In this document: positions 2,730 through 62,509 of the stretch, in pieces
How the letters are laid out: the number at the start of each line of letters is the position of its first letter
How positions within the stretch are numbered: position 1 is the stretch's first letter
From: an uncultured Candidatus Melainabacteria bacterium
GTDB lineage: Bacteria > Cyanobacteriota > Vampirovibrionia > Gastranaerophilales > Gastranaerophilaceae
Direction of reading: 5' to 3'
Assembly: GCA_947364235.1 (NCBI GenBank)
Contig: CANARY010000002.1
Location: 186,001-250,000, forward strand
DNA: 64,000 nt
Made by a program: the position numbers and the translations under genes
The notes under the pieces: model-generated
Seen by the model: only the letters and a program-made list of their open reading frames with translations
Database searches by the model: none
What the model was told of the DNA's origin: nothing

Positions 2730-3617
2730 TTATAACAAGTTCAAAGCAATACTTGGAGCTTGGTTTGCAGTTGCAAGTAAAGTTGCAGAAGCTTGCTGTA
2801 AGATTTGAGCTTTAATGTATGCAGAAGATTCTTCTGCCACATCTGCGTCTCTAATAGTAGATAAAGAAGAAGTGATGTTTTCAGATTGAACTCCGATTGA
2901 TTCAATAGCTGATTCGATTCTGTTTTGAGCCGCACCTAAAGTTGTTGTTCTTGCAGAAATTTCATTTATAACTTTGTCAATTTTATCAAGCATAACATTT
3001 TGTCCGCCGGTAATCTTGCTTCCATCATAACCTGAGCATAACTGAGCAACTTTTTCGATAGTAGCATCAGCTGTGTCGCCGTAATCAGTAAATAAAGTGT
3101 CAATGTGTCCGTCTTTAAATAAAGATTTGTCAAGAGCGATTTGGCTTGAATCGTCGCTGTATAGTCCTACTTGAAGAGCTACATCAGTTCCCATTGAGCC
3201 GTCCATCATGTTTAAACCATTGAATTCACAGTTAGAAGCAATACGATCAACTTCTTCAAGTCTTGCTGTGATTTCTGATTGAATTGCTTTTAAAGAATCA
3301 GAACCGTAAGTTCCGTTTGCAGCTTGTTCTGTTAAGTCTCTTACACGCTGTAAATGAGAAGAAACAAGAGCATAAGTGTCTTCCAATGTTGTAAGCATGT
3401 CAGCTCCTGTTGCTGCGTTGTCTGCTGCAACATCCAGAGAGCTCAGCTGAGTCTGCCAGTTTGTTGCAATTGAATAACCTGCTGCGTTGTCTGATGCGTG
3501 GTTAATTTTGTACCCTGTAGTCATTCTCTCGATTGCTTTGTTCAGGGAATTTGTTGCTTTGTTCAAATTGGATTGAACAATGAGTGATGAGATGTTCGTG
3601 TTGATTGTTAGCGCCAT
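2730..3617 (-). CDS. fliC: Flagellin
   Basis: The structural subunit of the flagellar filament, 295 residues. The N-terminal D0/D1 signature is clear (MALTINTNISSLIVQSNLNK, then a TTGYKINHASDNAAGYSIA segment), as is the C-terminal helix ending SATLLATANQAPSIALNLL. The central variable region is short. The start at 3617 is chosen because an AAAGGAGTT ribosome site sits just upstream and the conserved MALTINTN begins there; a longer in-frame start at 3641 lacks this support. No other basal-body or hook genes are adjacent. A TGTAACAA box and a weak sigma-28-like site lie upstream. Confidence 0.95.
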   Translation of the reverse strand: MALTINTNISSLIVQSNLNKATNSLNKAIERMTTGYKINHASDNAAGYSIATNWQTQLSSLDVAADNAATGADMLTTLEDTYALVSSHLQRVRDLTEQAANGTYGSDSLKAIQSEITARLEEVDRIASNCEFNGLNMMDGSMGTDVALQVGLYSDDSSQIALDKSLFKDGHIDTLFTDYGDTADATIEKVAQLCSGYDGSKITGGQNVMLDKIDKVINEISARTTTLGAAQNRIESAIESIGVQSENITSSLSTIRDADVAEESSAYIKAQILQQASATLLATANQAPSIALNLL

Positions 3618-3701
3618 TTTTAACTCCTTTCTGGCTATCACATCCTACGAATGCGTCCTTGCATTTGTCTTATATTTGACTAATTCCACATTTTCTAAAT
3701 T

Positions 3702-3740
3702 GATAACGCTTGAAAGGCTGATTATTTACAATTTGTTACA
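3702..3740 (-). promoter_or_regulatory. Weak sigma-28-like promoter and TGTAACAA box upstream of flagellin
   Basis: On the minus strand TGTAACAA (3733-3740) is followed by TAAATAAT (3721-3728), an 11-base gap, and GCGTTATC (3702-3709). The layout resembles the better sigma-28-like sites at 6.4, 20.9 and 39.3 kb, but both hexamer-type elements deviate from TAAAGTTT/GCCGATAA, and the TGTAACAA box is only 4 bases from the -35 element instead of 14-15. It would give a leader of about 75 bases. Confidence 0.35.
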
Positions 3741-6342: not shown

Positions 6343-6373
6343 TTTATTATATTTATACTTGTGATGTAAAGAT

Positions 6374-6423
6374 TTGTAACAATTTTTAAAAAACCTTAAA
6401 GTTTACAAAAAAAATGCCGTTAT
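6374..6423 (+). promoter_or_regulatory. Sigma-28-like promoter with upstream TTGTAACAA box (site 1)
   Basis: TTGTAACAA (6374-6382) is followed 14 bases later by TAAAGTTT (6397-6404), an 11-base spacer and GCCGTTAT (6416-6423). TAAAGTTT-N11-GCCGATAA is the known FliA consensus, so the -35 matches 8/8 and the -10 begins with the diagnostic GCCG. Transcription would start near 6430, giving a leader of about 38 bases before the MGMAASQ protein. The same block occurs at 20.9 and 39.3 kb. Confidence 0.8.
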
Positions 6424-6467: not shown

Positions 6468-7907
6468 ATGGGAATGGCAGCATCACAAGCAAGATTGTTA
6501 TCATTACAAGCAAGACAATCAAACCTTGAGTACCAAGGTCAACAAATAAACCAGGAGAGATCAATTTTATCTCAGCAATGTACAGCATTGTATAATAGCT
6601 TGTTGTCAATGACTGTTCCAACTCCTCCTGCTACGACAGATTTTCAAACTGTTAAGTATACAGGTGAAATGGGTGCTACAAAGTATTCATTTGACGCTAA
6701 TAGTATTAAGCCAAATGGTGGAGATACTTATACTGTAACAATGCAGGAGCAGAAGCATGGTGATTCTTTGCAGAAAAATGCTCAAATCGCTTTAGTTGAT
6801 ACAAATTCGGCTGGTGGTTTTAAAGGGATTGAGCTTAACACAGGTGCAACTCAAACTACAACTACAACTATTTCAACAGGAAAAATGCTTCCTGATTCAA
6901 ATGGTACAAAATATCTTGTACCGTTATCAGAAGCTACAATTGAAGCTGGTACTGTTGGAACATATTATAAAGCAAGCGGCAATGGTTATATAATGTATAC
7001 CGGTCCTGCAGATGCTGAATGTTATAGACTTGGTGCAAAAACAGAAAATGCTATTCAAGTATCTGAAGAAACTATAGAAGTAAAAGATGTTACTAATGAT
7101 GGCGTAGGCTTTATTCAAAGAAGTGAATTAACTGGTATTTTCATTTTAGAAAATGGCGAAGTAAGGCCGGCTACAATAAACGATTTTACTCAAGATGTTG
7201 ATATGCCAAATGTTTTAAAGTTTAAATCAGGGGTTAAATATATTCAACAGTCTTCAGATGGTAAATCTTATCAGCTAAAAGGCGATGTTGCCGGTGTAAC
7301 TGTTGGTAATAAAGGTGTTCACAAACTAACAGAAGAAGAAAAACAAAAATACGGCGATGCAATTTCAAATTGCGGTTTGAAGGATAAAGACGGAAATGCT
7401 TATGGACCGGATGACTTCATGATGTACTATGATGATAAAAACGGTGCAGTTTTTGTTCTCGAAAGTGATGTTTTTGATGGAAACAATAATGCTATTACAT
7501 ATAATTATGTTCCAAATGGTGAATTCTCTAAGAATCAAACTTATGATGAAGCAAAACTTGTATTTGACCCGACAAATGGAAGAATAACAGAGATTGCAAT
7601 TCCTAATTATGATGAAGAGGGCAATGTTACATCTTGGACTTCTATTTCAGTAAAAGCTGAAACTGTTGTAGATGAAGCTGCATATAATGATGCTTATGCT
7701 AAGTATGAATATGATACTTATATTTACGATCAGAAGAATAAAGAAATAAATGCTAAGACAGAAATGATTCAGCAGGAAGATAAGAACTTAGAGTTAAAAC
7801 TTCAAAGGCTTGATAATGAAAGAACTCAGATTACAACAGAAATCGAAGCGGTTGAAAAAGTTATCAATGATAACATCGAAGGTTCATACAAAACGTTCTC
7901 AGGCTAA
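6468..7907 (+). CDS. MGMAASQ-family protein, probable flagellum-associated or exported coiled-coil protein (copy 1)
   Basis: A 479-residue protein of unknown function. The first ~60 residues are helical and begin MGMAASQARLLSLQARQSN; the middle (about 65-420) is rich in Thr, Asn, Asp and Tyr and looks like beta-rich surface sequence; the last ~70 residues form a coiled coil ending NIEGSYKTFSG. The same N- and C-terminal plan occurs in the protein at 21017. Helical ends around a variable middle recall flagellin and hook-type axial proteins, but I see no homology to named families. There is no Sec signal peptide. A strong AAAAAGGAG site precedes the ATG, a sigma-28-like promoter lies upstream and a terminator follows, so it is transcribed alone. 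Flagellar export is inferred. Confidence 0.75.
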   Translation: MGMAASQARLLSLQARQSNLEYQGQQINQERSILSQQCTALYNSLLSMTVPTPPATTDFQTVKYTGEMGATKYSFDANSIKPNGGDTYTVTMQEQKHGDSLQKNAQIALVDTNSAGGFKGIELNTGATQTTTTTISTGKMLPDSNGTKYLVPLSEATIEAGTVGTYYKASGNGYIMYTGPADAECYRLGAKTENAIQVSEETIEVKDVTNDGVGFIQRSELTGIFILENGEVRPATINDFTQDVDMPNVLKFKSGVKYIQQSSDGKSYQLKGDVAGVTVGNKGVHKLTEEEKQKYGDAISNCGLKDKDGNAYGPDDFMMYYDDKNGAVFVLESDVFDGNNNAITYNYVPNGEFSKNQTYDEAKLVFDPTNGRITEIAIPNYDEEGNVTSWTSISVKAETVVDEAAYNDAYAKYEYDTYIYDQKNKEINAKTEMIQQEDKNLELKLQRLDNERTQITTEIEAVEKVINDNIEGSYKTFSG

Positions 7908-20816: not shown

Positions 20817-20923
20817 TATAATCTCCGAACCAAAAATCTCGTGTATGTTCATGCATTCGGCAAACAAATAAAAATCTTTAACATTTTTTGATGTAAATCA
20901 TCCGTACGTAGGAATGTAAATTT

Positions 20924-20974
20924 TTGTAACAATTTTTCTGAAATCCTAAAGTTTTGCCATAAATTTGCCGATAT
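20924..20974 (+). promoter_or_regulatory. Sigma-28-like promoter with upstream TTGTAACAA box (site 2)
   Basis: TTGTAACAA (20924-20932), then 14 bases, TAAAGTTT (20947-20954), a 12-base spacer and GCCGATAT (20967-20974). The -10 matches GCCGATA of the FliA consensus. The order and spacing almost duplicate site 1, although the surrounding sequence differs. The downstream gene is the second MGMAASQ protein. Confidence 0.8.
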
Positions 20975-21016: not shown

Positions 21017-22504
21017 ATGGGAATGGCAGCTTCACAAGTTAGATTTATGCAGCTGACTGCTCGAAAAAATGAAATCGGGCGGAATCTTCAAAGCTTGTCG
21101 CTGCAAAAAATGTCGCTTACCAGGGATATGACAAGGATTTCAAGAGAGTATCAAAATGCTTTGAATACAAAAACTTTGAAATGGTCAAATAATGCCGGGG
21201 TTAGTTATTCTGATTTAAGTTATGGTACATTGATGAGGCCTGGAGCTGCAAATAAGAATAAGCCTTATTTAATTACAAATAATAACGAACAAGTGGTGCT
21301 GGACAGCAAATATGCAAAGTATGCTTCAATGATTTCGCCTAATGGGGCTCCTGGCGGTGACTGGGAATCTAATAGAGCAAAGATTCTTTCTGAGCTTACT
21401 GGTATTTCTCAGGATAAGATTAATGCTGCATCTGAAGCCGGTGAAGCTGTTACTGCAGCAGCAAATAAAGTTAATGCTCTTAAAGATGAAGAAGCGACAG
21501 ACAGAAGTTTGCAAGAACCTGTAAGCAGTGATACAGCATCACAATTTTTTAAACTTGCGGGTCATGTCATGGCAAACGGAGTTTCTTATGATATTGGAAA
21601 ATTGTATAATTCTGCTAACAGCTGGCAGGAGCTTGGCAGCGCTGCTGCTGCAAAATCGGCATTAACTGCTTTGTTAAATGGTATTTCTAACAATATGAAA
21701 AATTATTTGACTGATAGTGACTATGAAAATTTCAAAAAAGCTTGTGATAATTACTTGGATACAAATGGACATTATTTCGGCGGGGCAAGTGAAGCTGACA
21801 AACAAGGATTAAATACTGGTATTGCTGGTATTAAGCAAAATGGTGATAACTATTCTGTAAATATGAAAACAGTTTTAGATGCTGTATTGGGTTCTTATAA
21901 AAATAGTGCAGGTTCATCGGCTTATGGCCAAAATAGTATGGGTACGGAAGTTTTTTACACTCGTGATAAAAATACAACAGCTTGGCAAAATTGGAAAATT
22001 GCTCATGATGATTGGCAGAAGAGGTATGATGAAGCTGTTGCTGAGCATAAAGCTGCGGTAAATGCTGATAACCAAGCTTTAAATTCTGAAGAAGAAAGTA
22101 ATATTAAGTTTTATGAGCAGCTTTTTTCAGCAATAGCAGAAAAAGGCTGGGTTGAAAATTCTCAGATTGAAGATAATAGCTATTTAAATAATATGCTTCA
22201 AAATAATCAATATTTCATTACAACAATGGAAGAACAAGCAGATGACGGAAAACGATATTTTGAATACAGTACAGATATAGCTTCAAATATGAATAACGTT
22301 TACCAGGTTAATGATTCTGATATTTTAAATGAAGCTCTTGTAAAATATGAACATGAGAAATCAATAATTAACGAAAAAGAATCAAGAATAGACACTAGAA
22401 TGACAAATCTTGAAACAGAGCAGTCAGCAATCAACAATATGATGAAAGGTGTCGAAACAGTAAGGAATGATAACGTAGAGAGAACATTCAGTATATTCTC
22501 ATAG
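21017..22504 (+). CDS. MGMAASQ-family protein, probable flagellum-associated or exported coiled-coil protein (copy 2)
   Basis: A 495-residue paralogue of the protein at 6468. It begins MGMAASQVRFMQLTARKNE, has a long Asn/Ser/Ala-rich middle, and ends with a coiled coil (KESRIDTRMTNLETEQSAIN) finishing ERTFSIFS. The middle differs from copy 1, while both ends keep the same pattern. No Sec signal peptide or membrane helix. The start follows AAAGGAAAGCGG. Its promoter is sigma-28-like. I infer export or assembly through a flagellar system; the function is unknown. Confidence 0.75.
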   Translation: MGMAASQVRFMQLTARKNEIGRNLQSLSLQKMSLTRDMTRISREYQNALNTKTLKWSNNAGVSYSDLSYGTLMRPGAANKNKPYLITNNNEQVVLDSKYAKYASMISPNGAPGGDWESNRAKILSELTGISQDKINAASEAGEAVTAAANKVNALKDEEATDRSLQEPVSSDTASQFFKLAGHVMANGVSYDIGKLYNSANSWQELGSAAAAKSALTALLNGISNNMKNYLTDSDYENFKKACDNYLDTNGHYFGGASEADKQGLNTGIAGIKQNGDNYSVNMKTVLDAVLGSYKNSAGSSAYGQNSMGTEVFYTRDKNTTAWQNWKIAHDDWQKRYDEAVAEHKAAVNADNQALNSEEESNIKFYEQLFSAIAEKGWVENSQIEDNSYLNNMLQNNQYFITTMEEQADDGKRYFEYSTDIASNMNNVYQVNDSDILNEALVKYEHEKSIINEKESRIDTRMTNLETEQSAINNMMKGVETVRNDNVERTFSIFS

Positions 22505-25791: not shown

Positions 25792-27567
25792 TTGTACACG
25801 GAACTTCTTGCACCAGCTAAAGATAAAGAAACTGCGATTGCTGCCATTGACTGCGGAGCGGATGCTGTTTATATGGGAGCTTCTGCTTTCGGAGCGAGAA
25901 GAAACGCTCCTAACTCTGTTGATGACATTAAAGAAGTTGTTGAGTATGCTCACAAGTTTTGGGCAAAAGTATTTATTACAATAAATACTATACTTACAGA
26001 TAGTGAACTTGATGAAGCTGTACAACTTGTTAAAAAACTGGATAAAATCGGAGTTGATGCTATTATTGTTCAGGATATGGGGCTGGCAGAACGCTTGATG
26101 GATGCGGGGATACCAATTCACATGAGTACTCAGTGCGATAACCGCGAGGCAGAAAAAGTTAAATTCTTTAACGATATAGGAGTTTCAAGAGTAGTACTTG
26201 CAAGAGAACTTTCTCTCAAACAAATAAAAGAAATTCACGAACAAAATCCCGATTTAGAACTTGAAGCATTTGTTCACGGTGCACTTTGTGTGTCATATAG
26301 CGGTCAATGTTATTTAAGCCAGTATATTGGCGGCCGCTCTGCAAATAGGGGTGAATGCGCGCAGCCATGCCGAAAGAAGTATACAGTAGAAACTATAGAC
26401 GGCAAAGTTATTGCAAAAGATATTCATGCGCTTTGTTTAAAAGATTTCAATGCTTCTAAACATATTAAAGAAATGATTGAAGCAGGTGTGTTTTCATTTA
26501 AAATTGAAGGCAGGCTGAAAGAGACTGGGTATGTAAAAAATGTTACAGCGTTTTACCGGCATGAGCTGGATAAATATTCTGCAAAATCTTCATCCGGAAG
26601 ATGCATTTACCCCTTTGAGCCTAATCCCGAAAAAAGTTTTAACCGAGGATTTACAGATTATTTCTTAGATAGAAGAAAAGATTGTTTTAATTTTGACTCT
26701 CCAAAATCAAAAGGTGAGTACCTTGGGAAAATTGTTGAGGTTAAGAAAAATTGTTTTAAGATAAAAACTGATAAGAAAATAAATGCGCAAGATGGTTTAA
26801 CAGATGGTGTAAATGGTTTTCTTGTTAACAAAGTAGAAAACGGGTTTATTTATCCGAATAAAGAATTTAGTCTTAAAGCCGGAGTTAAAATTTATCGAAA
26901 TTCTGACGCTGAGTTTGAAAAACTTCTTGCTCTGCCTGTAAAACGCCAAATCGGTATCAAAGCAGTTATTGATGGAAAACTTACTCTGACAGATGAAGAC
27001 GGAGTGACGGTATCCATTGAGCTGCCGAAGGGAGAAAAAGCTAATAATCCTGAAAAAATGAAAGAGACTTTTATAAAACAGTTTTCTAAAACAGGAGAGA
27101 GCGATTTTTATATTTTCAATATAAAAATCGTTGCAGAGCTTCCGTTTATGCCTGTTTCTGCAATCAATCAACTTCGGAGAGAAGCGTTTGATTTGCTTAT
27201 GCAAGAAAGATTAAAACAGTATAAACGCGAGCAGGGTAAAAAATTAGACTATACTCAGTTTTATAAGAAAAAACTTGATTACCGTGCAAATGTTCATAAT
27301 GACTCTGCAAAAACGTTTTATGATAAATGCGGTGCTGAAGTTTGTGAAATGTCTTTAGAAACTAAGCTTCCAAAAGATGAAGTTGAGTTAATGCGTACAA
27401 AACATTGTATAAAATATGCGCTTGGGATATGTAAATCTCCAGAAAGGCTTGTTTTAAAAGACGAGTTTGGAAAAGCTTATCCTTTGAAGTTTGACTGCGC
27501 TAAATGCGAGATGACAGTTATTGCGCCGCAGCCTGCTGCAAAGCAGCTGCTTCCTGCTGAGCTTTAG
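25792..27567 (+). CDS. U32 family peptidase / RlhA-like RNA hydroxylation protein
   Basis: A 591-residue U32-family protein. The N-terminus ELLAPAKDKETAIAAIDCGADAVYMG, the AFVHGALCVSYSGQCYLSQ signature, and cysteines in GECAQPCRKKY are diagnostic. The C-terminal region fits the extended RlhA/YdcP type (DUF3656-like); relatives hydroxylate 23S rRNA or tRNA rather than act as proteases. It starts with TTG directly after the previous stop codon; no later start keeps the conserved N-terminus. The last 50 bases overlap the 3' end of the convergent gene. Confidence 0.85.
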   Translation: MYTELLAPAKDKETAIAAIDCGADAVYMGASAFGARRNAPNSVDDIKEVVEYAHKFWAKVFITINTILTDSELDEAVQLVKKLDKIGVDAIIVQDMGLAERLMDAGIPIHMSTQCDNREAEKVKFFNDIGVSRVVLARELSLKQIKEIHEQNPDLELEAFVHGALCVSYSGQCYLSQYIGGRSANRGECAQPCRKKYTVETIDGKVIAKDIHALCLKDFNASKHIKEMIEAGVFSFKIEGRLKETGYVKNVTAFYRHELDKYSAKSSSGRCIYPFEPNPEKSFNRGFTDYFLDRRKDCFNFDSPKSKGEYLGKIVEVKKNCFKIKTDKKINAQDGLTDGVNGFLVNKVENGFIYPNKEFSLKAGVKIYRNSDAEFEKLLALPVKRQIGIKAVIDGKLTLTDEDGVTVSIELPKGEKANNPEKMKETFIKQFSKTGESDFYIFNIKIVAELPFMPVSAINQLRREAFDLLMQERLKQYKREQGKKLDYTQFYKKKLDYRANVHNDSAKTFYDKCGAEVCEMSLETKLPKDEVELMRTKHCIKYALGICKSPERLVLKDEFGKAYPLKFDCAKCEMTVIAPQPAAKQLLPAEL

Positions 27568-29209
27568 CTTGTGCTTTTAACTGATTCCATTGGCTTATAT
27601 CTTTGATGTCGTTTAGTGTTTTTAGTGCATCTTCAAGCTGCTTCTTTTCCTGCTCAAGCTGGTTTAAATAAGCTTCTGTCTGTTCAGGTGTCATATCAAT
27701 TATGGCACTTCCGAGTAATGGTACAGAAAATTCACGCTGCCATTGTGCTAATGTAAGCGGAGCCGGCGAAGCAGGTGATGTTAAAGCAATTTTTGTTAGT
27801 TCTCCGTATTTACCTGGATTCTTGCCTCCGATTGCTAACTGATATTCGTTTTTGCGCCAGGTTGCAGGTTTCCACCAGTGTTTTTCAACGTTTGGAGACG
27901 GAATATAATCAGAAAGTTCTGATGCATATTTATCCGGCTTTGCTGCTTTTACACGCATAACGCATTCGCGAAGTTCAATTAGTTCTTTGAAGTCTTTGCT
28001 GTAAGTTTCTTTTAAAACATCAAGCTCTGCTTTAGATTTTATGTTTTTGAATTTTTGTAAAGCTTTACGCTGTTTTACAAGTGCTTTTCTTTCATTCCAT
28101 AAATTTTTTAAAGTAGTTCTGTCTGCTCGATTTGTATTTTTAATTTGTCTATTAAGCTCAGTGATTCTTTGCTGTGTTGACTTCTCCATTTGGCTGTATT
28201 TGTTTTCGTATCTTTTTTCCCAGCTGTTAAAGTTTTCCCAGGCATTTACCGCTTTATTTTTCCAGGCTTTGAAGAAACCTGATGTACCTCCGCCTTTCGC
28301 TGTTATTAGCGCAGCATCTGTTTTCATTGCCTGTGCTGTACCTTTTACAGCGTTTACTGTCATGTCTTTAGTGAAATTAGATACGGCTCTTGTTACTCTG
28401 CCGCCTATACTTGCAGAAGTCGAAGCTGTAGAAGCTCCTGATGTTCTGAATGCTTTACCCAGGCCTCTCATGCCGGCAGCTGACGCAATTCCGACAAATG
28501 CTCCTGAACATATATCTTGTCTAGCTTGTTCTTTTTCTTCTTCTGTTGCTGCATTATTTAATTTTTTAGCACCTTTGTATACTCCGACAGCTCCGCTTCC
28601 AATTCCATAAGCAAGCAGACTGTAACCTATCGCAGGGCCTGCGAAAGGTATAAAGCAGGCGCCGATTGCTGCTGCTGTTATAGCAACATTAGTGAGACAT
28701 TTTTTTAGACTAAATTTCCCATCTTTATCGTAGCCGGCAAGGCTCTTACCCATATTTGCAAGTGCTGTTCCTGCACTTGCAGCCCACTCTCCGGCTTTTT
28801 GCCAGAATCCTTTTTTCTTAGGTTTCAAGGCTTCAGTATCAACTGTTCCGTCTTCTTTAAGTTTTACGCCTTCAAGTTTTGCAGATTCTACAATACTGCT
28901 TCCGTCAGATTTTTTACCTTCTTTAATGGTTTCAATCATTTTTGATTGTTCTGTAATTAAATCTCTTGTTTTACTTATTTCTTTAGATTTTTCTCGTATA
29001 AATTCTATATTTGTTTGAGTATTTTCACTTTCTTTGTATTTTTCTTTTATCCATTCTTCATAAGAGTCTGGAGTTGAAACAGAGCTTGCTGGAGCTTGCC
29101 AAATAGGCATTTGAAAACCATTGAACATATTTGGACTCCAGAAGTTGTTGTTCATTGTAAAATTGTTTGGATTCCATAGCGGTAATTGAAAGTTAAAACT
29201 TAATCCCAT
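27518..29209 (-). CDS. Large protein of unknown function with Gly/Ala-rich hydrophobic core and coiled coils
   Basis: A 563-residue protein. The N-terminus is unusual, rich in Asn, Phe, Trp and Pro (NFQLPLWNPNNF, NNNFWSPNMFNGF). Residues ~50-95 are a charged helix. Residues ~165-210 are hydrophobic and Gly/Ala rich (VAITAAAIGACFIPFAGPA). The rest is basic helical sequence, ending with an Ala/Gln-rich coiled coil. No Sec signal. The plan of coiled coil plus Gly/Ala-rich hydrophobic segments resembles the protein at 37661 and, loosely, type III translocators, but no family is recognised. The upstream region has A/T tracts and a TGTAAACATTTGTAAAT sequence but no sigma-28-like site. Confidence 0.7.
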   Translation of the reverse strand: MGLSFNFQLPLWNPNNFTMNNNFWSPNMFNGFQMPIWQAPASSVSTPDSYEEWIKEKYKESENTQTNIEFIREKSKEISKTRDLITEQSKMIETIKEGKKSDGSSIVESAKLEGVKLKEDGTVDTEALKPKKKGFWQKAGEWAASAGTALANMGKSLAGYDKDGKFSLKKCLTNVAITAAAIGACFIPFAGPAIGYSLLAYGIGSGAVGVYKGAKKLNNAATEEEKEQARQDICSGAFVGIASAAGMRGLGKAFRTSGASTASTSASIGGRVTRAVSNFTKDMTVNAVKGTAQAMKTDAALITAKGGGTSGFFKAWKNKAVNAWENFNSWEKRYENKYSQMEKSTQQRITELNRQIKNTNRADRTTLKNLWNERKALVKQRKALQKFKNIKSKAELDVLKETYSKDFKELIELRECVMRVKAAKPDKYASELSDYIPSPNVEKHWWKPATWRKNEYQLAIGGKNPGKYGELTKIALTSPASPAPLTLAQWQREFSVPLLGSAIIDMTPEQTEAYLNQLEQEKKQLEDALKTLNDIKDISQWNQLKAQAKAQQEAAALQQAAAQ

Positions 29210-29326
29210 AAATATTTCCTAATTTAATATCCCTTATTAATATAAAGTGTTCTTTTTTTTAGTTATTGCTTTTTATTTACAAATGTTTACATTTATAAGA
29301 AAATTTTTTTGCTGTATAATTAATTT

Positions 29327-39284: not shown

Positions 39285-39332
39285 CGGCATTTTTAGAGGA
39301 AAACTTTAGGATATGAAAAGAAATTGTTACAA
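39285..39332 (-). promoter_or_regulatory. Sigma-28-like promoter with upstream TTGTAACAA box (site 3)
   Basis: On the minus strand TTGTAACAA (39324-39332) is followed by 15 bases, TAAAGTTT (39301-39308), a 12-base spacer and a GCCGTAAA-type -10 whose GCCG occupies 39285-39288. It lies just after the rqcH stop codon and drives the Ala/Glu-rich protein. Same layout as sites 1 and 2. Confidence 0.8.
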
Positions 39333-54313: not shown

Positions 54314-57300
54314 GTGAGCATATCATTCAGCGGATTAGCGTCCGGACTAGATACTTCATCATGGGTCGAATCTCTGGTAGCATTGAAGCAGGCGAAAGTC
54401 GACACTTTGGAAGAACAGAAAGAAACTGTTCTGCTTTCGCGTGAGACGCTGAATAATATTAAATCGTTTTTTAATTCTTTCCGTTCAGTTATTGAAAAAG
54501 TTACTGATGCAAAATACGGCGTGGTTTCAATGGATATTTTTGCTCAGAAGCTTGCAGTTTCTTCTAATCTAAATGTGCTTACGGCAAGTGCTGCTACTGA
54601 TGCAGAAGAAGCAACTTATACAGTACTTGTTGATAATCTGGCAACGAGCACTGAGGCTATGAGCGGTTTAAAATCTTTCAATACTATTATCCAAACTGAG
54701 ACTGCTGCAGCAGACACAAAACTTTTGGATTTGGGTGTTAAGGTTGGTAATATCGGAATAAATAATAACGGTGTTTATAATATTATAGGGATTGAGGAGA
54801 ATGATACGATTTCAAGCTTCATTGCTAAACTTAGAGATATCGGGGTTGATGCTTCTTATAATCCTAATACAGGTATTTTCGGTATAAATTTAGATAATGA
54901 CTGTATTGATGATACTTTGACTGTACATAAAGACGGAAGTGTCGGTACGGGGATTTTGGATGTTTTTCATCTTGAGGAAAAAGGCGGGTACGAAAGTACG
55001 TTTTTGCAGGTAACCACTTCTAAAACAATTGTTACAACAGCTACAGAAGATACAAAATTATCGGAAATAGGGAGCATAGGTACTGGTAATATTCAGGTTA
55101 ATACAGGCGGAGGTTCGCACACCGTATCTGTAAACGGAGATAAAACTCTTGGCGAGCTGATTGAAGATTTGCGTAATCTTGGTATTGATGCAAGCCTTTC
55201 AGAAGACGGTTCACTTATAATAAAAGATGCGGAAATCGTTGATAGCGGGGGAACGGGAATATTAGATTCTCTTGGCTTAGAATCTGAGGTCGGCTCAAAA
55301 ACTCAGACTACAGGCGGGCTTACTACTGTTGAAGTTACAACAACGACTTCTGCTGCAACCGGCGATACAAAACTTTCCGAGCTTGGGACTATTACGAATG
55401 GAAATATGCTTGTTAAAGCAAACGGCACTACTTATACTATAGGTGTAAGCGGCTCTACTACATTGTCTCAGTTAATTTCTGCTTTAACTTCAAAAGGTAT
55501 AGATGCAAGCCTTTCGGAAGACGGTACGCTTACGATTAAAGATGCGGAAATTATTGATAATGGAACCGGAATACTTGGTGCTCTAGGCTTAGAAGGCAGT
55601 GTTGATTCTAAGAATCAGACTTCTGTAGATTTAAAAACTGTCCAGGTTACGACTACGGCTTCTGCAGCTACAGGTGCGACAAAGCTTTCAGAGCTTGGAA
55701 CGATAAAATCCGGCAATGTTCTGGTAAAGGCAAATGGCACAACTTATACTGTTGCTGTAAGCGGAACAACAACTCTTTCTCAGCTCGTATCAGCTTTGAC
55801 GTCTAAGGGTATTGATGCAAAACTTTCTTCTGACGGAGTTTTGACGATAAAAGATGCAGAAATTGTTGACAGCGCAGGCACTGGGATTGCAAATGCTCTG
55901 GGGCTTCAAACTGAGATTAATTCCAAGACCCAGACTGCAAATAATTTAAGCTATAAATCTGTAATAACAACAGAGACGAGTGCAACCGGCGCAACTAAGC
56001 TTGGCGAGCTGGAAACTTGGAAAGGAACGAGCCAGACACTTGTTGCTAAGAGTGCAGCAGGCAAGCTGACTACAATTACTGTAACTTCAACTACGACTAT
56101 TAATGATGTAGTATCTAAGATTAATTCTGCAGGATTGAGTGCTGCATTAAGCTCCAGCGGGGTGCTTGCGGTAACAGGAGGTCAAGTTACAGGTGTTGGA
56201 GCAGAAATACTTGGAATTGTAAGCGGTTCAGAAAATACAAACAGCGTATGGGCAAATGGCAATACTTTGTATACTCAGGGTGTTAAATATGCAGTTGCTT
56301 CGAATACTCTGGGAGAGCTGGGAATTAGTACTACAAAGCCTGCCGGCGGTTATGCTTTGGCAGTGTTTAATTCTTCAAATGCGCTTGTCAAAGAAATAGC
56401 TGTAACTGCTAATACACGTATAGATGATATTTTTAAATCATTAGGCTCTTATGGAATATCTGGAACAATTGCAGATGGCAGAATTACATTAGAATCCGGA
56501 AATGGTAATTATATCAAAGGTGTTGTTGCAGAAGGATTAGGAATAACAACAAAAACTTCTGTTATTGTGAATAGTACCAGTGCTTCTTCAACGTCTGCAA
56601 TAAAATACACAGTAACTCAAATGGTGAGCGGAACAACGACTTTTGCTCAGGCAGGATTGAATGCTGCAGGCAAAGTAATGAATGTCAAAACAAAAGAAAA
56701 CGGTGTAATTAAGGCTTCAATAACTATAGATAGTAACGCTAAGACATTTGACAATTTGTTTACTCAGCTTAGCGCGCAAGGTGTTAGTGCATCTATTAGC
56801 AATGGTGTGATTACTTTTTCTTCAAATCAGTATTATGTAGATGGCAGCCTTGCTGATTTGCTGGGAGTTGAGGCGTATTCTACAAGCAACGCTTACACGG
56901 TTGGTCAATCTACAACGTCTACGGCGCAGCTAATGTATACTACGGCAATTCTTGCGACCGGTGCTGCTCTTATTAAAGATTATATAACTCTTGATTCTAA
57001 TGTTTCAAAAAATACAATACGAATTTACGCGAACAATAATACCAGTTATAAAGATTTTACCATCACATCGTCAACAACATTTGACCAGATGATGACTGCT
57101 ATGAGAAATCAAGGAATCAATGTTACTCTGGCACTGACAGGTATTTTAAGTTTTGGGACTCCGACAAAAGGGGCATACGCAGCGGATGTTGCAGCCGGCG
57201 GTGTTTTGTCTAAACTGGGTATAGGTGCAAACAATACCGGTGTCATTACATTGGCAGTCTCTCAGACTTCATCAAGCGCATTGACTTATAAGTCAGAAAA

Positions 57301-60300
57301 TAAGACTTATTTTAGTTGTAATAGTGACGTGACTTTACAGAATACTAAACTGGGTGATATTTTGAGCATGGATGCCGGTAAAGATTATTATATCGTTAAG
57401 AACCAAGGAAGTTATTCTCATAAATATTTGACCGTTAGTCCCGGTAATACTATATCTTATCAAGAAATAGAATATCGTCCTACAGTAACTGTGACTGTAA
57501 ACTCCACAATGACGATATACCAATTACAAAATGCATGTAATTATAGAGGTATTGACTTTGACTATTATTTAGGTCAACAGGTAGGTTTTTACTTTAATCT
57601 TGATAATATTCTTGAATTTCTTAGCGGTTCTTTTATGAAAGATGTTTTACATGCTGAAAATTCTGGTCATATGGCGGTTATTGATAATGACTATCATCAT
57701 GCCGGGGTAACCGAGAGAACCGTGACCAGCAGGGAATCTTTAAATCTAAGTGCAGGTAGTCGTTTTTCTGATTTGGGCTTAGGTGGTAACGGTTCAATTG
57801 ATTTTAGTTATGCTTTTCAAGAAATATCTCGTGTTTACAACGGTATTACTGTTTACTCTCAATCAACAAGCAGTGCTGCATTTTATTTTGATTTGAATAC
57901 AACAGTACAAAATTTTCTTGATTTCTTAAATAATACTATTGGGGTTTCAGCTGCTTTAAGTGGAGGAAAGCTTACTATAAAACAAGGCAGTGGAACCAAA
58001 AAATCAATTCTGATGAGTGCAGATAGCCGCGGAAATCATGCAGAGGAATTGTTAAATATATTTAAGATTTCTTTAGGAAGCGGAGTTTCTTATACACAAG
58101 GTGCTACAAAAGGATATTCTATGAACTACTACAATAGAGTTGTTTCAACCCCTGTTTATAAAGTAAGCACAGTGTTAGCTCAGGCAACTACTTCAACAAA
58201 GCTTGTTGATATGGGCATACAAGAAGGTGAATATACTATGTTTTCGTACATAGACCGTTCTGGAACGGAAGCAGCGAAAAGAAACTTTATGCTGACAGTG
58301 AATGCCTCTACAACAGTACAAGATATGCTAAATCGAATTAACAGCTCATCAAATCTTTTGAATGCTTCATTTGCAAACGGAAAATTGACGATTACCGGCA
58401 AGCAAACTGATAATGACCATAATGCTTATATTACAAGATTTAGTTCTTTATTTAAAAATGTATTTAAACTTGGTGATGCTGGTTTAGATAAAACATATCA
58501 GACAACAACTCTTAAAAAGAATACAAATTCTGCAGTTCAAACAAGGCAAGGAGCGGTTCCAATTGGAAATATTGATGGTAATACAAGTGGCTCTAATGAA
58601 GCTTCTAAAACACTGCGTCAGGTTGGCTTGACTTCTAATGCGACAATCTCCATGAATAACACTGATGGAAAATTAACCTGGAAAATTATTACTCCTAACA
58701 TGAGGCTTGAAGATTTTAAGAAAATCTTAACTGATTATGGTGTTTCAGTATCTTTTGGCAATTCAAAGGTTACCATTGGTTCTCTAAATGATTCAGAATG
58801 GATTGAGACAATGTCTGATAATTTGAGAAATGTGCTCAAATTAAAAAATATCGGCACCGGATTTACGTATGAAATCATCGGAAATGCTGCTTATGAAAAT
58901 ACGTCGTCACGTACTATCAAAACAATTACAACTCATACAGCATCCGGCACAACCCGCTTGGAACAAATCGACGGATTTAACGGCGGCAATGGTAATATTA
59001 TCATTCATAATGAAGCCGGGGTAATGGAAACCGTATACATTAACTCAACATCTACTTTAAACGAGTTTTTCAGTCAAATTGCTGCTTACGGGCTTACCGG
59101 CAGTGTAAACGCATCCGGCGTAGTAACCATTAACGGCAAAGGCAGGGCTTCAATCTCTACAGCATCAGGAGGTTCAAATCTTGTTTCACTCCTCAAGCTT
59201 TCTCAATCAAAAGCTTCTAAAACTGTTACAGTAAATACAACTACTGCAGCGATAAGCTCTACAGCGCGAATATTTGCATCAGATGATACGCAGCTTGGAA
59301 ATCTTGAGTATTCAAACGGTACAAAGCTTACTTTTGATTCCAACGGATTTGCTGCGCTTGTATTGCAGACAAAATCGCATGACGGGCTGTTAAAAAACAT
59401 GACTGTTAATTTCACGAAAACTTCAACTTTGGGCTCTGTTATTCAAACACTTGCTGGTCAAGGGCTAAACGCATCAATTGAAGCTTCCGGCCTGTTCTCA
59501 ATAAACACTGATAAGCTTTCAGATTTCAGTGTCTCAGGTACTCTTGGTGCTTATTTGATGGGTGCAAATTACAACAAATGTTATGAGACAAGAGCAAGCG
59601 AACCGCTAATGTCGGTTAAGACTTCGACTTTGACAGCTGCTGCAACGAGAGAAACAAAGCTTTCTGACCTTGGAGTTACTGCTGGAGAGTATAATATTTA
59701 TAAAAATGGCGTAAAATACACCGCGCTTATTTCCTCTGATGAGACAGTAGGTACTTTTATGGATACGCTTGCAGCTTTTGGTATTCAAGCAGGTCTTGTA
59801 AATAACGGTACTTCATCAAAACTTGTTCTCCAAGGTTCCGGAGATTCTTATGTTGCAAAATCAAACAGTGTTTCAAATACTTCCAATGTTGTAGAAAAGC
59901 TGTTTGGTACAGGCGCTCCGTCTGCTTCATACAGCTACGTCGGTTCAGAGCTTGTTTCAAAAACATCAACTTCAACTATTGCTGCAACAGGAGCAACTGC
60001 GCTTTCTAACTTCGGCATAACTACAGGCGAGTTTAACATATTTGAAAACGGTGTTAAATACACAGAATATATTTCTGCAGATGATACTCTCGAAAGCTTC
60101 ATGAATAAGCTTCAAGCTCACGGTATACAAGCTGCTCTTATTAACCAGGGCGGAAGTGCAAAGCTTATGCTTACAGGTAATGGAAATTCTTATGTTGCAA
60201 AATCAAACAGCGTGTCAAATGTTTCTAATGTTGTAGAAAAGCTTTTTGGAACAACTTCTACGGTTAATAATATGACTTACACAGGTTCGCAGCAGACAAC

Positions 60301-62509
60301 AGTTGTATCCACTTCAACAGTTTCAGCGACTGGTGCAACTTCGCTTTCTTCGCTGGGTGTAACTTCCGGTGAATACTACATTTACAAAGACGGAGTTAAA
60401 TACACAGCGTTAGTTGCTTCGAATGAGACGCTGGGCTCACTGATGGATACGCTTAAGTCGTTTGGTTTCCAGGCTGCTTTAGTAGATGACGGCGGAAGCT
60501 CTAAGCTTGTTGTGATAGGTTCTGGAGATTCTTATATTGCAAAATCAAATAATGCTTCAAATGCTTCTAATATTGTTGATAAGTTATTTAGCGGCAGCGC
60601 TGTTTCAGCAGCTCCAGCGCGTTCAATGATGCGTGCAAGGGCAGCTGCTCCTGCTCCGGGAGCTCCTGATACTTCTTACAATTATGCCGGCGGAATGTTG
60701 ATTTATACTACAATCACTCATACTTCTACTGCAACAGAAGATACTTTACTGAGCGCGTTTGACACTCCTTGGGGCGGTACAATGCTTAAATCTGCAGGAG
60801 ATTTGGTCTTGAGTGTTGACGGCAAGAACAGGCTTGTGAAAATTTCTGAGACAGAAACTTTCGGTTCTTTGATTGATAAGCTTAATTCTATTGGTGTAGA
60901 AGCTCAGATTATAGGCGGGAAGTTCTATATCAGCGAGATGAACAATGTTTCAATCGTAGCAAGCGGAACTACTTCAAGTATTATTAATCCGAATGCTAAT
61001 ATTCATTTGAATTACAAGAGTTCAATGGACATGTTTATGGAAAGTACTGCAGCAATCGAAAAAACAACCACGATAGTAGAAGAAGCCACTCTCTCTGCTT
61101 CGAATTATGCTGACTTAAACACAACTCTCGAAACTTTGAATATTACAGGCGGTACGTTCTCTGTGTATAGAAACGGTCAGAAAGCAACAATAAATATAAA
61201 CTCAGATAGTACATTCTCAGATTTACGTTCACAGATTTCATCAAGATTTTCTGATATCGATTTGAAATTTGATAACGGAAAGCTTGTAATATTTTCAAAA
61301 ACAGACGGAGTTGAAGTTAAAGCAGGTTCGACAACAGATACTTCTAATATGCTTTCTGTAACAGGGCTGGCTATGAATGAAGAGGGGCAGGCTGTGAGTG
61401 CAAGGCAGTTATTTAGTGTAAATGAAAATTCTGTATTGACTCAAGCTGGATTATTCAGAAAGGCTGATATCAAAGCAGGTACTTTCTATGTTGGAGAACA
61501 GGTAATTAATATTACTGACAAATCAACTTTGAATGATATAATTACGCAGATTAATTCATCTGACAAATCTAATGCAACTGCTTGGTGGGATAGTATTAAC
61601 GGCAGGTTTGTAATAAAAGCCAGGACAACAGGGGCTGCGCTTATAAATATTGAAGCTGGAACAAGTAATTTTACGGATGTAATGGGTTATACTGAAACTG
61701 AATGGTATGCTGACGGTTCTGTTAAATTTAGCAGAATGATGACTGAGCAGCAGAAAATTGGTGATAATGCAAGATTTTCTATTAATGGAACGTCTTTTAC
61801 TGCAACTTCAAATACTTTAACAAGCGATATTACAAGGATTAAAGGGCTTACAGTAAATCTTACCGGGCTTACGAACGGCGCTGCTGTTACTGTTAAAGTT
61901 GAAAAAGATAAAGAAACTGTTGCAAAATCTTTATCTGAGATTGTTGATTCTTATAATAAGCTTATGAAAAATGTTGATGAAGCTGTAGCAAGAAGCGGGG
62001 CTTTGCATAATCAGTCTATGCTTAAGATGCTAAGAAATCAGATACGAAATGCAATGACAGCATCTATCGGCGGTGACAGTGTGTTTAAAAATTTGCATGC
62101 AATCGGAGTTTCGGTATCTTCTGCTAATGCGAATAATATTTCAACTTCTAACGAAAGTATTATTAATCTGAGTTTTGACAAAGACAGTTTCTTGAAAGCT
62201 TATAGTGCTGATGCTGAAGCTGTGAGAGAATTGCTTATCGGTAAAGGGCTCAAAGGTGCAGCAGGAGCAACAGAAGGTGTATTTACCAAGGTTGAAAGTA
62301 TTGTTGAAAACGCACTTTCTTCTGTTATTGGATATTTTTCAATAGCTGATGAAGCTTATGCAAGAGAGATTAAGAAAATTGATAATAAGATTGTTAAAGG
62401 AACGGAAGCTATAGAAAAATATCGTGCAAGACTGAATAAAAAGTTTAATTCTATGGATATGTTAATTTCTAACATGCAGAATCAGTATAGTTCGTTTTTA
62501 GGTGCTTGA
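54314..62509 (+). CDS. fliD: Giant FliD-like flagellar hook-associated (cap) protein with about 20 internal repeats
   Basis: A 2731-residue protein; ordinary FliD has roughly 450-700. Residues 1-115 match FliD_N (GLASGLDTSSWVESLVALKQ then a coiled coil). Residues ~2490-2731 match FliD_C (LSEIVDSYNKLMKNVDEAV ... IEKYRARLNKKFNSMDMLIS). Between them lie about 20 units of 90-125 residues resembling the flagellin hook-IN motif: a TKLSELG opening, a short strand pair, a TTLSQLISAL-like helix, GIDASLSEDGTLTI and a closing LGL. Three consecutive N-terminal units (~240-565) are very similar to each other, and so are three near ~1770-2100. An Ala/Pro/Arg linker lies near residue 2100. GTG start after AAGGAT. 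FliD caps the filament and can bind host surfaces; here it may be a long adhesive cap. Frame intact throughout. Confidence 0.88.
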   Translation: MSISFSGLASGLDTSSWVESLVALKQAKVDTLEEQKETVLLSRETLNNIKSFFNSFRSVIEKVTDAKYGVVSMDIFAQKLAVSSNLNVLTASAATDAEEATYTVLVDNLATSTEAMSGLKSFNTIIQTETAAADTKLLDLGVKVGNIGINNNGVYNIIGIEENDTISSFIAKLRDIGVDASYNPNTGIFGINLDNDCIDDTLTVHKDGSVGTGILDVFHLEEKGGYESTFLQVTTSKTIVTTATEDTKLSEIGSIGTGNIQVNTGGGSHTVSVNGDKTLGELIEDLRNLGIDASLSEDGSLIIKDAEIVDSGGTGILDSLGLESEVGSKTQTTGGLTTVEVTTTTSAATGDTKLSELGTITNGNMLVKANGTTYTIGVSGSTTLSQLISALTSKGIDASLSEDGTLTIKDAEIIDNGTGILGALGLEGSVDSKNQTSVDLKTVQVTTTASAATGATKLSELGTIKSGNVLVKANGTTYTVAVSGTTTLSQLVSALTSKGIDAKLSSDGVLTIKDAEIVDSAGTGIANALGLQTEINSKTQTANNLSYKSVITTETSATGATKLGELETWKGTSQTLVAKSAAGKLTTITVTSTTTINDVVSKINSAGLSAALSSSGVLAVTGGQVTGVGAEILGIVSGSENTNSVWANGNTLYTQGVKYAVASNTLGELGISTTKPAGGYALAVFNSSNALVKEIAVTANTRIDDIFKSLGSYGISGTIADGRITLESGNGNYIKGVVAEGLGITTKTSVIVNSTSASSTSAIKYTVTQMVSGTTTFAQAGLNAAGKVMNVKTKENGVIKASITIDSNAKTFDNLFTQLSAQGVSASISNGVITFSSNQYYVDGSLADLLGVEAYSTSNAYTVGQSTTSTAQLMYTTAILATGAALIKDYITLDSNVSKNTIRIYANNNTSYKDFTITSSTTFDQMMTAMRNQGINVTLALTGILSFGTPTKGAYAADVAAGGVLSKLGIGANNTGVITLAVSQTSSSALTYKSENKTYFSCNSDVTLQNTKLGDILSMDAGKDYYIVKNQGSYSHKYLTVSPGNTISYQEIEYRPTVTVTVNSTMTIYQLQNACNYRGIDFDYYLGQQVGFYFNLDNILEFLSGSFMKDVLHAENSGHMAVIDNDYHHAGVTERTVTSRESLNLSAGSRFSDLGLGGNGSIDFSYAFQEISRVYNGITVYSQSTSSAAFYFDLNTTVQNFLDFLNNTIGVSAALSGGKLTIKQGSGTKKSILMSADSRGNHAEELLNIFKISLGSGVSYTQGATKGYSMNYYNRVVSTPVYKVSTVLAQATTSTKLVDMGIQEGEYTMFSYIDRSGTEAAKRNFMLTVNASTTVQDMLNRINSSSNLLNASFANGKLTITGKQTDNDHNAYITRFSSLFKNVFKLGDAGLDKTYQTTTLKKNTNSAVQTRQGAVPIGNIDGNTSGSNEASKTLRQVGLTSNATISMNNTDGKLTWKIITPNMRLEDFKKILTDYGVSVSFGNSKVTIGSLNDSEWIETMSDNLRNVLKLKNIGTGFTYEIIGNAAYENTSSRTIKTITTHTASGTTRLEQIDGFNGGNGNIIIHNEAGVMETVYINSTSTLNEFFSQIAAYGLTGSVNASGVVTINGKGRASISTASGGSNLVSLLKLSQSKASKTVTVNTTTAAISSTARIFASDDTQLGNLEYSNGTKLTFDSNGFAALVLQTKSHDGLLKNMTVNFTKTSTLGSVIQTLAGQGLNASIEASGLFSINTDKLSDFSVSGTLGAYLMGANYNKCYETRASEPLMSVKTSTLTAAATRETKLSDLGVTAGEYNIYKNGVKYTALISSDETVGTFMDTLAAFGIQAGLVNNGTSSKLVLQGSGDSYVAKSNSVSNTSNVVEKLFGTGAPSASYSYVGSELVSKTSTSTIAATGATALSNFGITTGEFNIFENGVKYTEYISADDTLESFMNKLQAHGIQAALINQGGSAKLMLTGNGNSYVAKSNSVSNVSNVVEKLFGTTSTVNNMTYTGSQQTTVVSTSTVSATGATSLSSLGVTSGEYYIYKDGVKYTALVASNETLGSLMDTLKSFGFQAALVDDGGSSKLVVIGSGDSYIAKSNNASNASNIVDKLFSGSAVSAAPARSMMRARAAAPAPGAPDTSYNYAGGMLIYTTITHTSTATEDTLLSAFDTPWGGTMLKSAGDLVLSVDGKNRLVKISETETFGSLIDKLNSIGVEAQIIGGKFYISEMNNVSIVASGTTSSIINPNANIHLNYKSSMDMFMESTAAIEKTTTIVEEATLSASNYADLNTTLETLNITGGTFSVYRNGQKATININSDSTFSDLRSQISSRFSDIDLKFDNGKLVIFSKTDGVEVKAGSTTDTSNMLSVTGLAMNEEGQAVSARQLFSVNENSVLTQAGLFRKADIKAGTFYVGEQVINITDKSTLNDIITQINSSDKSNATAWWDSINGRFVIKARTTGAALINIEAGTSNFTDVMGYTETEWYADGSVKFSRMMTEQQKIGDNARFSINGTSFTATSNTLTSDITRIKGLTVNLTGLTNGAAVTVKVEKDKETVAKSLSEIVDSYNKLMKNVDEAVARSGALHNQSMLKMLRNQIRNAMTASIGGDSVFKNLHAIGVSVSSANANNISTSNESIINLSFDKDSFLKAYSADAEAVRELLIGKGLKGAAGATEGVFTKVESIVENALSSVIGYFSIADEAYAREIKKIDNKIVKGTEAIEKYRARLNKKFNSMDMLISNMQNQYSSFLGA
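55030..56010 (+). repeat. Near-identical hook-IN-like repeat units in the N-terminal part of the giant FliD
   Basis: Three consecutive units share the pattern TKLSE(L/I)G, VKANGTTYT, TTLSQL, SALTSKGIDA and TIKDAEI-D with a terminal LGL. Aligned units differ at many synonymous codon positions while keeping the protein sequence, so the DNA repeats are older than they look at protein level. Confidence 0.75.
59620..60600 (+). repeat. Second group of near-identical repeat units in the giant FliD
   Basis: Three consecutive units share a Gly-Glu-(F/Y)-x-I opening, NGVKYT, a (T/S)FM or SLMDTL helix, GxQAALV, and a long conserved SYVAKSNSVSN-x-SNVVEKLFG ending. This type is distinct from the 55-56 kb units, indicating two separate expansions within one gene. 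Confidence 0.75.

What the first reader, a model, noticed from the sequence alone, without database searches (positions are those of the whole stretch)
6374..6423. Three unlinked unknown genes share one compound sigma-28-like promoter: TTGTAACAA, 14-15 nt, TAAAGTTT, 11-12 nt, GCCG
Sites at 6374-6423, 20924-20974 and 39285-39332 (minus) keep order and spacing closely while the flanks differ. TAAAGTTT and GCCG(A)T(A) fit the FliA consensus. The upstream TTGTAACAA box, itself a short palindrome (TTGT-A-ACAA), is not part of the known sigma-28 promoter and may be a second regulator's site. This defines a regulon of undescribed proteins presumably made late in flagellar assembly.
Basis: partly seen in the sequence, partly recalled or inferred. 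Interest (0 to 1): 0.82.

Follow-up and report, generated by a model that had tools for sequence, protein, structure and literature searches.

The report
Cyanobacterial light-response box at sigma-28 promoters
In a non-photosynthetic gut relative of cyanobacteria, about two dozen promoters for the flagellar sigma factor carry an upstream DNA box that matches the site cyanobacteria use for their light-response regulator RpaB, which gives that regulator a first testable job in these dark-living bacteria.

Summary
The three sites are real. The core is a sigma-28 (FliA) promoter: 26 exact cores (spacer 11 or 12) were collected genome-wide, and 21 carry TGTAA exactly 22-23 nt upstream of TAAAG. The stricter TTGTAACAA composite occurs 11 times, with none for the reversed pattern.

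The upstream box is not a palindrome. It is the promoter-proximal half of a tandem repeat, TGTAA-N5-TGTAA (10-bp period). On the other strand this reads as the cyanobacterial HLR1 element, the site of the OmpR-type regulator RpaB. In same-genus genomes 43 of 63 sites have the second TGTAA exactly 10 bp upstream; no other offset exceeds 3. Flanks and period fit HLR1, not the WalR box. The genome encodes RpaB and a true FliA, both outside the window.

The regulon is mostly unnamed proteins: MGMAASQ family, EF-hand, LysM, transglycosylase-like. 'Late flagellar' is doubtful: the flagellin sigma-28 promoter lacks the box, and 70 of 95 relatives without a flagellar-type FlhA keep composite sites.

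Best reading: RpaB and sigma-28 jointly control a regulon of probably exported proteins. RpaB binding and activation are inferred, not shown.

The parts
6363..6380 (+).
   Evidence: exact TGTAA-N5-TGTAA; matches the reverse complement of the published HLR1 consensus
6397..6423 (+). sigma-28 core of site 1: TAAAGTTT, N11, GCCGTTAT
6468..7907 (+). MGMAASQ-family protein, 479 aa, downstream of site 1
   Evidence: no NCBIfam or confident Pfam match
20913..20930 (+). HLR1-like box of site 2: left TGTAA 20915-20919, right TGTAA 20925-20929
20947..20974 (+). sigma-28 core of site 2: TAAAGTTT, N12, GCCGATAT
21017..22504 (+). MGMAASQ-family protein, 495 aa, downstream of site 2
   Evidence: AlphaFold2 is confident only for the N- and C-terminal helices
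39326..39343 (-). HLR1-like box of site 3: intact right half, degenerate left half (AGTTA)
   Evidence: locus L004
39281..39308 (-). sigma-28 core of site 3: TAAAGTTT, N12, GCCGTAAA
37661..39247 (-). unknown protein, 528 aa, starting MAIQDSF, downstream of site 3; same-genus relatives have MAIQDSF starts behind the same composite
   Evidence: L222, L239
3726..3740 (-). TGTAA-N5-TGTAA repeat upstream of a flagellin gene (2730-3641, minus), without a good sigma-28 core
29277..29291 (-). TGTAA-N5-TGTAA repeat upstream of an unknown gene (27518-29209, minus), without a sigma-28 core

Best explanation
These are composite promoters. RNA polymerase with the flagellar-type sigma factor sigma-28 (FliA) reads the core TAAAGTTT-N11/12-GCCGATA. 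About 50-70 bp upstream of the expected transcript start lies an 18-bp tandem repeat, WWTGTAAM-NN-WWTGTAAM, which is the cyanobacterial HLR1 element on the opposite strand. The most likely binder is RpaB, an OmpR-type response regulator, as a tandem dimer. It probably helps recruit sigma-28 polymerase, so the genes need two inputs: free sigma-28 and phosphorylated RpaB. Shown here: the promoter architecture, its fixed spacing and orientation, its conservation across the genus, the match to HLR1, and the presence of RpaB and FliA genes. Inferred: that RpaB binds, that it activates rather than represses, and that the proteins are exported. The signal is unknown; the organism is presumed to live in the gut without light.
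For: Of 26 exact sigma-28 cores in the genome, 21 have TGTAA at exactly -23/-22 from TAAAG. In 63 same-genus sites chosen without regard to the left half, 43 have a second TGTAA exactly 10 bp upstream; no other offset exceeds 3. Letters that HLR1 predicts around the core hold: A/C after the right half in 63 of 63 and after the left half in 58 of 63. With up to 2 mismatches over 16 positions, 84-92% of sites fit HLR1, against 7-8% when the left half is shuffled. The HLR1 consensus is from PMC11633204. Period 10 against period 11 (the WalR box) is 16:0 in this genome and 46:1 in relatives. Where the box is not at -23 it often sits at -33/-34, one helical turn further up. RpaB equivalog NF045944: 354.4 bits, cut-off 330; the two other OmpR regulators score 214 and 201. 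Its DNA-binding domain is 72% identical to that of a Synechococcus sp. relative, with the stretch DTRVVDVHISRLRSKLE unchanged. FliA: 231.7 bits, cut-off 189.6. TGTAA-N5-TGTAA occurs 72 times in the genome against 14 for the reversed control. Precedents: RpaB sites ~50-100 nt upstream of the start activate (PMC11633204); an HLR1-like region at -45 to -60 was essential for promoter activity (PMC9241938); CRP activates sigma-28 promoters from -49.5 (PMC2859248).
Against: No binding, transcript-start or expression data exist for this organism. Related OmpR/PhoB regulators read similar TGTnA repeats, so the binder's identity rests on motif plus orthology. RpaB clears its cut-off by only about 24 bits. 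Site 3 in the window has a degenerate left half. Some sigma-28 promoters lack the box altogether. Many relatives have few composite sites, and whether they keep RpaB was not checked genome by genome. No HLR1 box coupled to sigma-28 was found in the library.
Confidence: 0.72

Rival explanations
1. The box is read by another OmpR-type regulator of the genome (the products at L075 or L076), not by RpaB.
For: The genome has three OmpR-type DNA-binding proteins, and many members of this family bind direct repeats.
Against: The other two share only 28-31% of the DNA-binding domain with the genome's RpaB and lack its recognition stretch. The repeat fits the RpaB site in spacing and flanks.
Confidence: 0.13
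2. RpaB binds but represses: it holds the sigma-28 promoters silent until it is dephosphorylated.
For: RpaB represses many cyanobacterial genes, and repression dominates where HLR1 overlaps the core promoter (PMC6331805; PMC11633204).
Against: Here the box lies upstream of the -35 element, the placement linked to activation (PMC11633204, PMC9241938), and its phase to the core is nearly invariant.
Confidence: 0.1
3. There is no second protein: the box is an UP element or an extended sigma-28 promoter element touched by polymerase itself.
For: The region is AT-rich and close to the -35 element.
Against: A strict TGTAA repeated at exactly 10 bp in one orientation, the A/C preference after each half, and placements displaced by one helical turn are not what a simple AT-rich UP element predicts. 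The same repeat also occurs away from any sigma-28 core, in the window at 3726 and 29277.
Confidence: 0.04
4. One reading: a palindromic TTGT-A-ACAA site and a regulon of late flagellar proteins.
For: The core is a sigma-28 promoter, and this genome has flagellin and a flagellar-type FlhA.
Against: The ACAA half varies. The flagellin sigma-28 promoter lacks the box. The composite persists in genomes without a flagellar-type FlhA.
Confidence: 0.01

Closest known systems
HLR1 element and RpaB of cyanobacteria
   Same: [quoted passage not shown] upstream placement as at RpaB-activated promoters; an RpaB above the NCBIfam equivalog cut-off is in the genome
   Different: Coupled to sigma-28 promoters of unnamed, probably exported proteins in a lineage reported to be non-photosynthetic; no light input expected; binding not tested
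CRP-activated sigma-28 promoters aer and trg of E. coli (PMC2859248)
   Same: An activator site upstream of a sigma-28 core
   Different: CRP acts at only two E. coli sigma-28 promoters and is centred at -49.5; here a different activator family appears on most sigma-28 promoters of the genome
WalR/VicR box, TGTWAH-N5-TGTWAH (PMC4168254)
   Same: Tandem TGTWA half-sites read by a related OmpR-type regulator
   Different: WalR repeats have an 11-bp period; here the period is 10 (46:1 and 16:0)
Classical FliA regulon
   Same: TAAAGTTT-N11-GCCGATA core; FliA present; flagellin under a sigma-28 promoter
   Different: The boxed promoters drive mostly unnamed proteins and persist in relatives without a flagellar-type FlhA

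Membership tests
HLR1 element | two direct TTACA-type half-sites, 10-bp period | tested here: met
   43 of 63 exact at -10 in relatives; period 10 versus 11 is 46:1 and 16:0; window site 3 has only one good half
HLR1 element | flanking consensus letters (G/T before, A/T after each half-site) | tested here: met
   58-63 of 63 at each flank position in relatives
HLR1 element | bound by RpaB | not testable with these tools
   needs EMSA, DAP-seq or ChIP
RpaB | NCBIfam equivalog NF045944 above its cut-off | tested here: met
   354.4 bits against 330
NblS (partner kinase of RpaB) | NCBIfam equivalog NF045911 above its cut-off | tested here: not met
   NblS is the best family for the L306 kinase, but 329 bits lies far below the cut-off of 1000; not filed as NblS
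sigma-28 (FliA) promoter | TAAAGTTT-N11-GCCGATA consensus upstream of genes | tested here: met
sigma-28 (FliA) promoter | a FliA-family sigma factor in the genome | tested here: met
   TIGR02479 231.7 against 189.6
sigma-28 (FliA) promoter | mapped transcript start downstream of GCCGATA | not testable with these tools
   no transcript data
WalR box | TGTWAH half-sites with an 11-bp period | tested here: not met
   1 of 47 in relatives, 0 of 16 in this genome
late flagellar (class 3) regulon | includes flagellin and is confined to flagellated relatives | tested here: not met
   flagellin sigma-28 promoter is boxless; 70 of 95 relatives without flagellar-type FlhA have composite sites (tally)

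The most novel reading that the evidence does not exclude
RpaB with its HLR1 box predates oxygenic photosynthesis. In gut Gastranaerophilales it survives as the standing co-activator of sigma-28 for a regulon of exported proteins, possibly substrates or axial parts of a second flagellum-like type III export system that remained after many lineages lost the flagellum.
Probability: 0.3. Interest if true: 0.88.

Novelty: new variant of a known kind. Interest (0 to 1): 0.74.

Why it matters
Non-photosynthetic relatives of cyanobacteria are known to keep rpaA, rpaB and nblS homologs, and the authors could say only that these 'may have another function' (PMC3787301; also PMC4040986). This work names a concrete set of candidate target promoters for RpaB in such an organism, so the question becomes directly testable. 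It also suggests a sigma-28 regulon in which most promoters carry an activator site, whereas activator control of sigma-28 promoters is described in only a few cases (PMC2859248). It points to a shared regulon of unnamed, probably surface or exported proteins in common gut bacteria.

Tried and rejected
Palindrome reading of TTGTAACAA: rejected, the ACAA half varies. WalR box: rejected on its 11-bp period. The window's own sigma factors (45010 and 17068) as the FliA: both below the FliA cut-off. The other two OmpR regulators as RpaB: below cut-off. L306 as NblS: best match but far below cut-off, left open. Flagellar-only regulon: not supported. Pfam and NCBIfam gave no confident family for the MGMAASQ proteins. 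The AlphaFold2 model of the 21017 protein has mean pLDDT 42, so no fold search was run. Literature searches found no paper linking RpaB or HLR1 to sigma-28; the library is open-access only.

Full report
What was checked. The three sites exist at the stated coordinates and spacings. The window is part of a 1.93-Mb genome in 12 contigs; RpaB hits place it next to Candidatus Gastranaerophilales, a non-photosynthetic sister lineage of the cyanobacteria. The strict composite TTGTAACAA-N12..17-TAAAG-...-GCCG occurs 11 times in the whole genome and the reversed control never.

The core. TAAAGTTT-N11-GCCG has 20 exact copies and the N12 form 7. Of the 27 promoter-like cores examined, most overlap no ORF, and the rest overlap only marginally or with a doubtful ORF; most have an ATG within about 25-110 nt downstream. 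One exact core drives a flagellin (L016). The genome encodes one sigma factor above the FliA/WhiG cut-off among those scanned, at C2:143.7k, outside the window. The two window sigma factors do not pass it. I take the core as a sigma-28 promoter.

The box. Of 26 exact cores, 21 have TGTAA at -23 or -22 from TAAAG. This number is not biased by the box, because exact cores were searched for without it. Many sites have a second TGTAA 10 bp further up. As a replicate I took 63 sites from seven other genomes of the genus. They were selected for the core and right half only. The left half is exact at -10 in 43 of 63, while no other offset between -55 and -14 exceeds 3. Among same-genus cores that lack TGTAA at -23, 8 have it at -33 or -34, one helical turn higher. 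This fits a protein that contacts polymerase from one face of the DNA. The orientation is fixed.

Identification as HLR1. The published HLR1 consensus is (G/T)TTACA(T/A)(T/A)NN(G/T)TTACA(T/A)(T/A) (PMC11633204; same in PMC9241938). Its reverse complement differs from a bare TGTAA repeat in the letters it predicts around each half; I scored it as WWTGTAAMNNWWTGTAAM. Those outer letters were not used to select the relatives' sites, yet they hold at 58 to 63 of 63 per position; two or fewer mismatches occur in 84% of sites, against 7% after shuffling the left half. The WalR/VicR box, TGTWAH-N5-TGTWAH (PMC4168254), is similar but has an 11-bp period; here period 10 beats 11 by 46 to 1 and 16 to 0. 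In this genome's own set, 11 sites were first found with TTGTAACAA, so the base after the right half is biased there; the relatives' set is not.

The regulator. Three OmpR-type regulators are encoded. One scores above the RpaB equivalog cut-off, 354.4 against 330; the others score 214 and 201. Its DNA-binding domain is 72% identical to that of a Synechococcus sp. relative, 81% to Vampirovibrio, and about 30% to the other two own regulators. The kinase L306 matches NblS best but far below cut-off, so the partner stays open. Retention of rpaA, rpaB and nblS homologs in this lineage is published, with function unknown (PMC3787301; PMC4040986).

The regulon. Boxed promoters precede MGMAASQ-family proteins; long proteins that begin with EF-hand motifs; a LysM protein; a protein with a weak match to lytic transglycosylase, just under the Pfam cut-off; a locus whose later gene reads as an AMIN/amidase-type protein by eye (not tested by profile); and conserved small proteins. 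The MGMAASQ proteins share N- and C-terminal motifs around a variable middle. AlphaFold2 is confident only for the two terminal helices. That layout resembles flagellar and type III axial proteins; this is a resemblance, not a test. One MGMAASQ gene and the transglycosylase-like gene lie within about 10 kb of the second FlhA-type gene at C6.

Flagellar or not. Every one of 146 order members has a FlhA-type gene, but in two main score classes: about 860-890 bits (flagellar type) and about 715-735 bits. By my hand tally, 51 genomes have the first class and 95 do not; 70 of those 95 still have at least one composite site, against three control matches in all 146 genomes. The naming of the two classes is mine, from scores, and no tree was built. 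Box coupling is strongest in this genus (12-29 sites) and in g15 (9-18). A member of g20 has nine sigma-28 cores and no composite, so the pairing varies between lineages.

Mechanism and limits. The repeat spans roughly -50 to -70 relative to the expected start, which is itself placed by the usual distance from the -10 element and not mapped. In cyanobacteria RpaB activates from about that region and represses near the start (PMC11633204). CRP activation of E. coli aer and trg shows that sigma-28 polymerase can be helped by an upstream activator (PMC2859248). I therefore favour co-activation by RpaB. Binding, direction of control and signal are untested. Relatives are not independent samples, so the small P-values overstate the case; the pattern itself does not depend on them.

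Noticed in passing
G000 C5:17468-19459 and C6:51752-53728; 146 genomes of the order: Two score classes of FlhA-type proteins: one near 870 bits in only some genera, one near 720 bits in nearly all, suggesting a widespread second flagellum-like export system.
   Followed up: partly
window 2730-3641 (minus) with repeat at 3726-3740: A flagellin gene whose upstream region has a perfect TGTAA-N5-TGTAA repeat but no good sigma-28 core.
   Followed up: no
window 27518-29209 (minus) with repeat at 29277-29291: An unknown 563-aa gene with a perfect HLR1-like repeat and no sigma-28 core; part of a genome-wide excess (72 against 14) of the repeat.
   Followed up: no
L282:5584-5916 (C2, minus): A 110-aa relative of the MGMAASQ proteins, almost only two helical ends, in an operon behind a sigma-28 core with the box shifted upstream.
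   Followed up: partly
window 54314-62509: A 2731-aa ORF whose start resembles the flagellar cap protein FliD; unusually long. Read by eye only.
   Followed up: no
G000 C5 ends (L047, L048): The same sigma-28 core sits at both ends of contig C5, with different upstream flanks, so it lies in a repeat that breaks the assembly.
   Followed up: no
L012, L286, L294, L299: An HD-GYP-like protein has a boxless sigma-28 promoter with its own conserved upstream AACTAAAGTATAA in four genomes of the genus; HD-GYP is read by eye.
   Followed up: no
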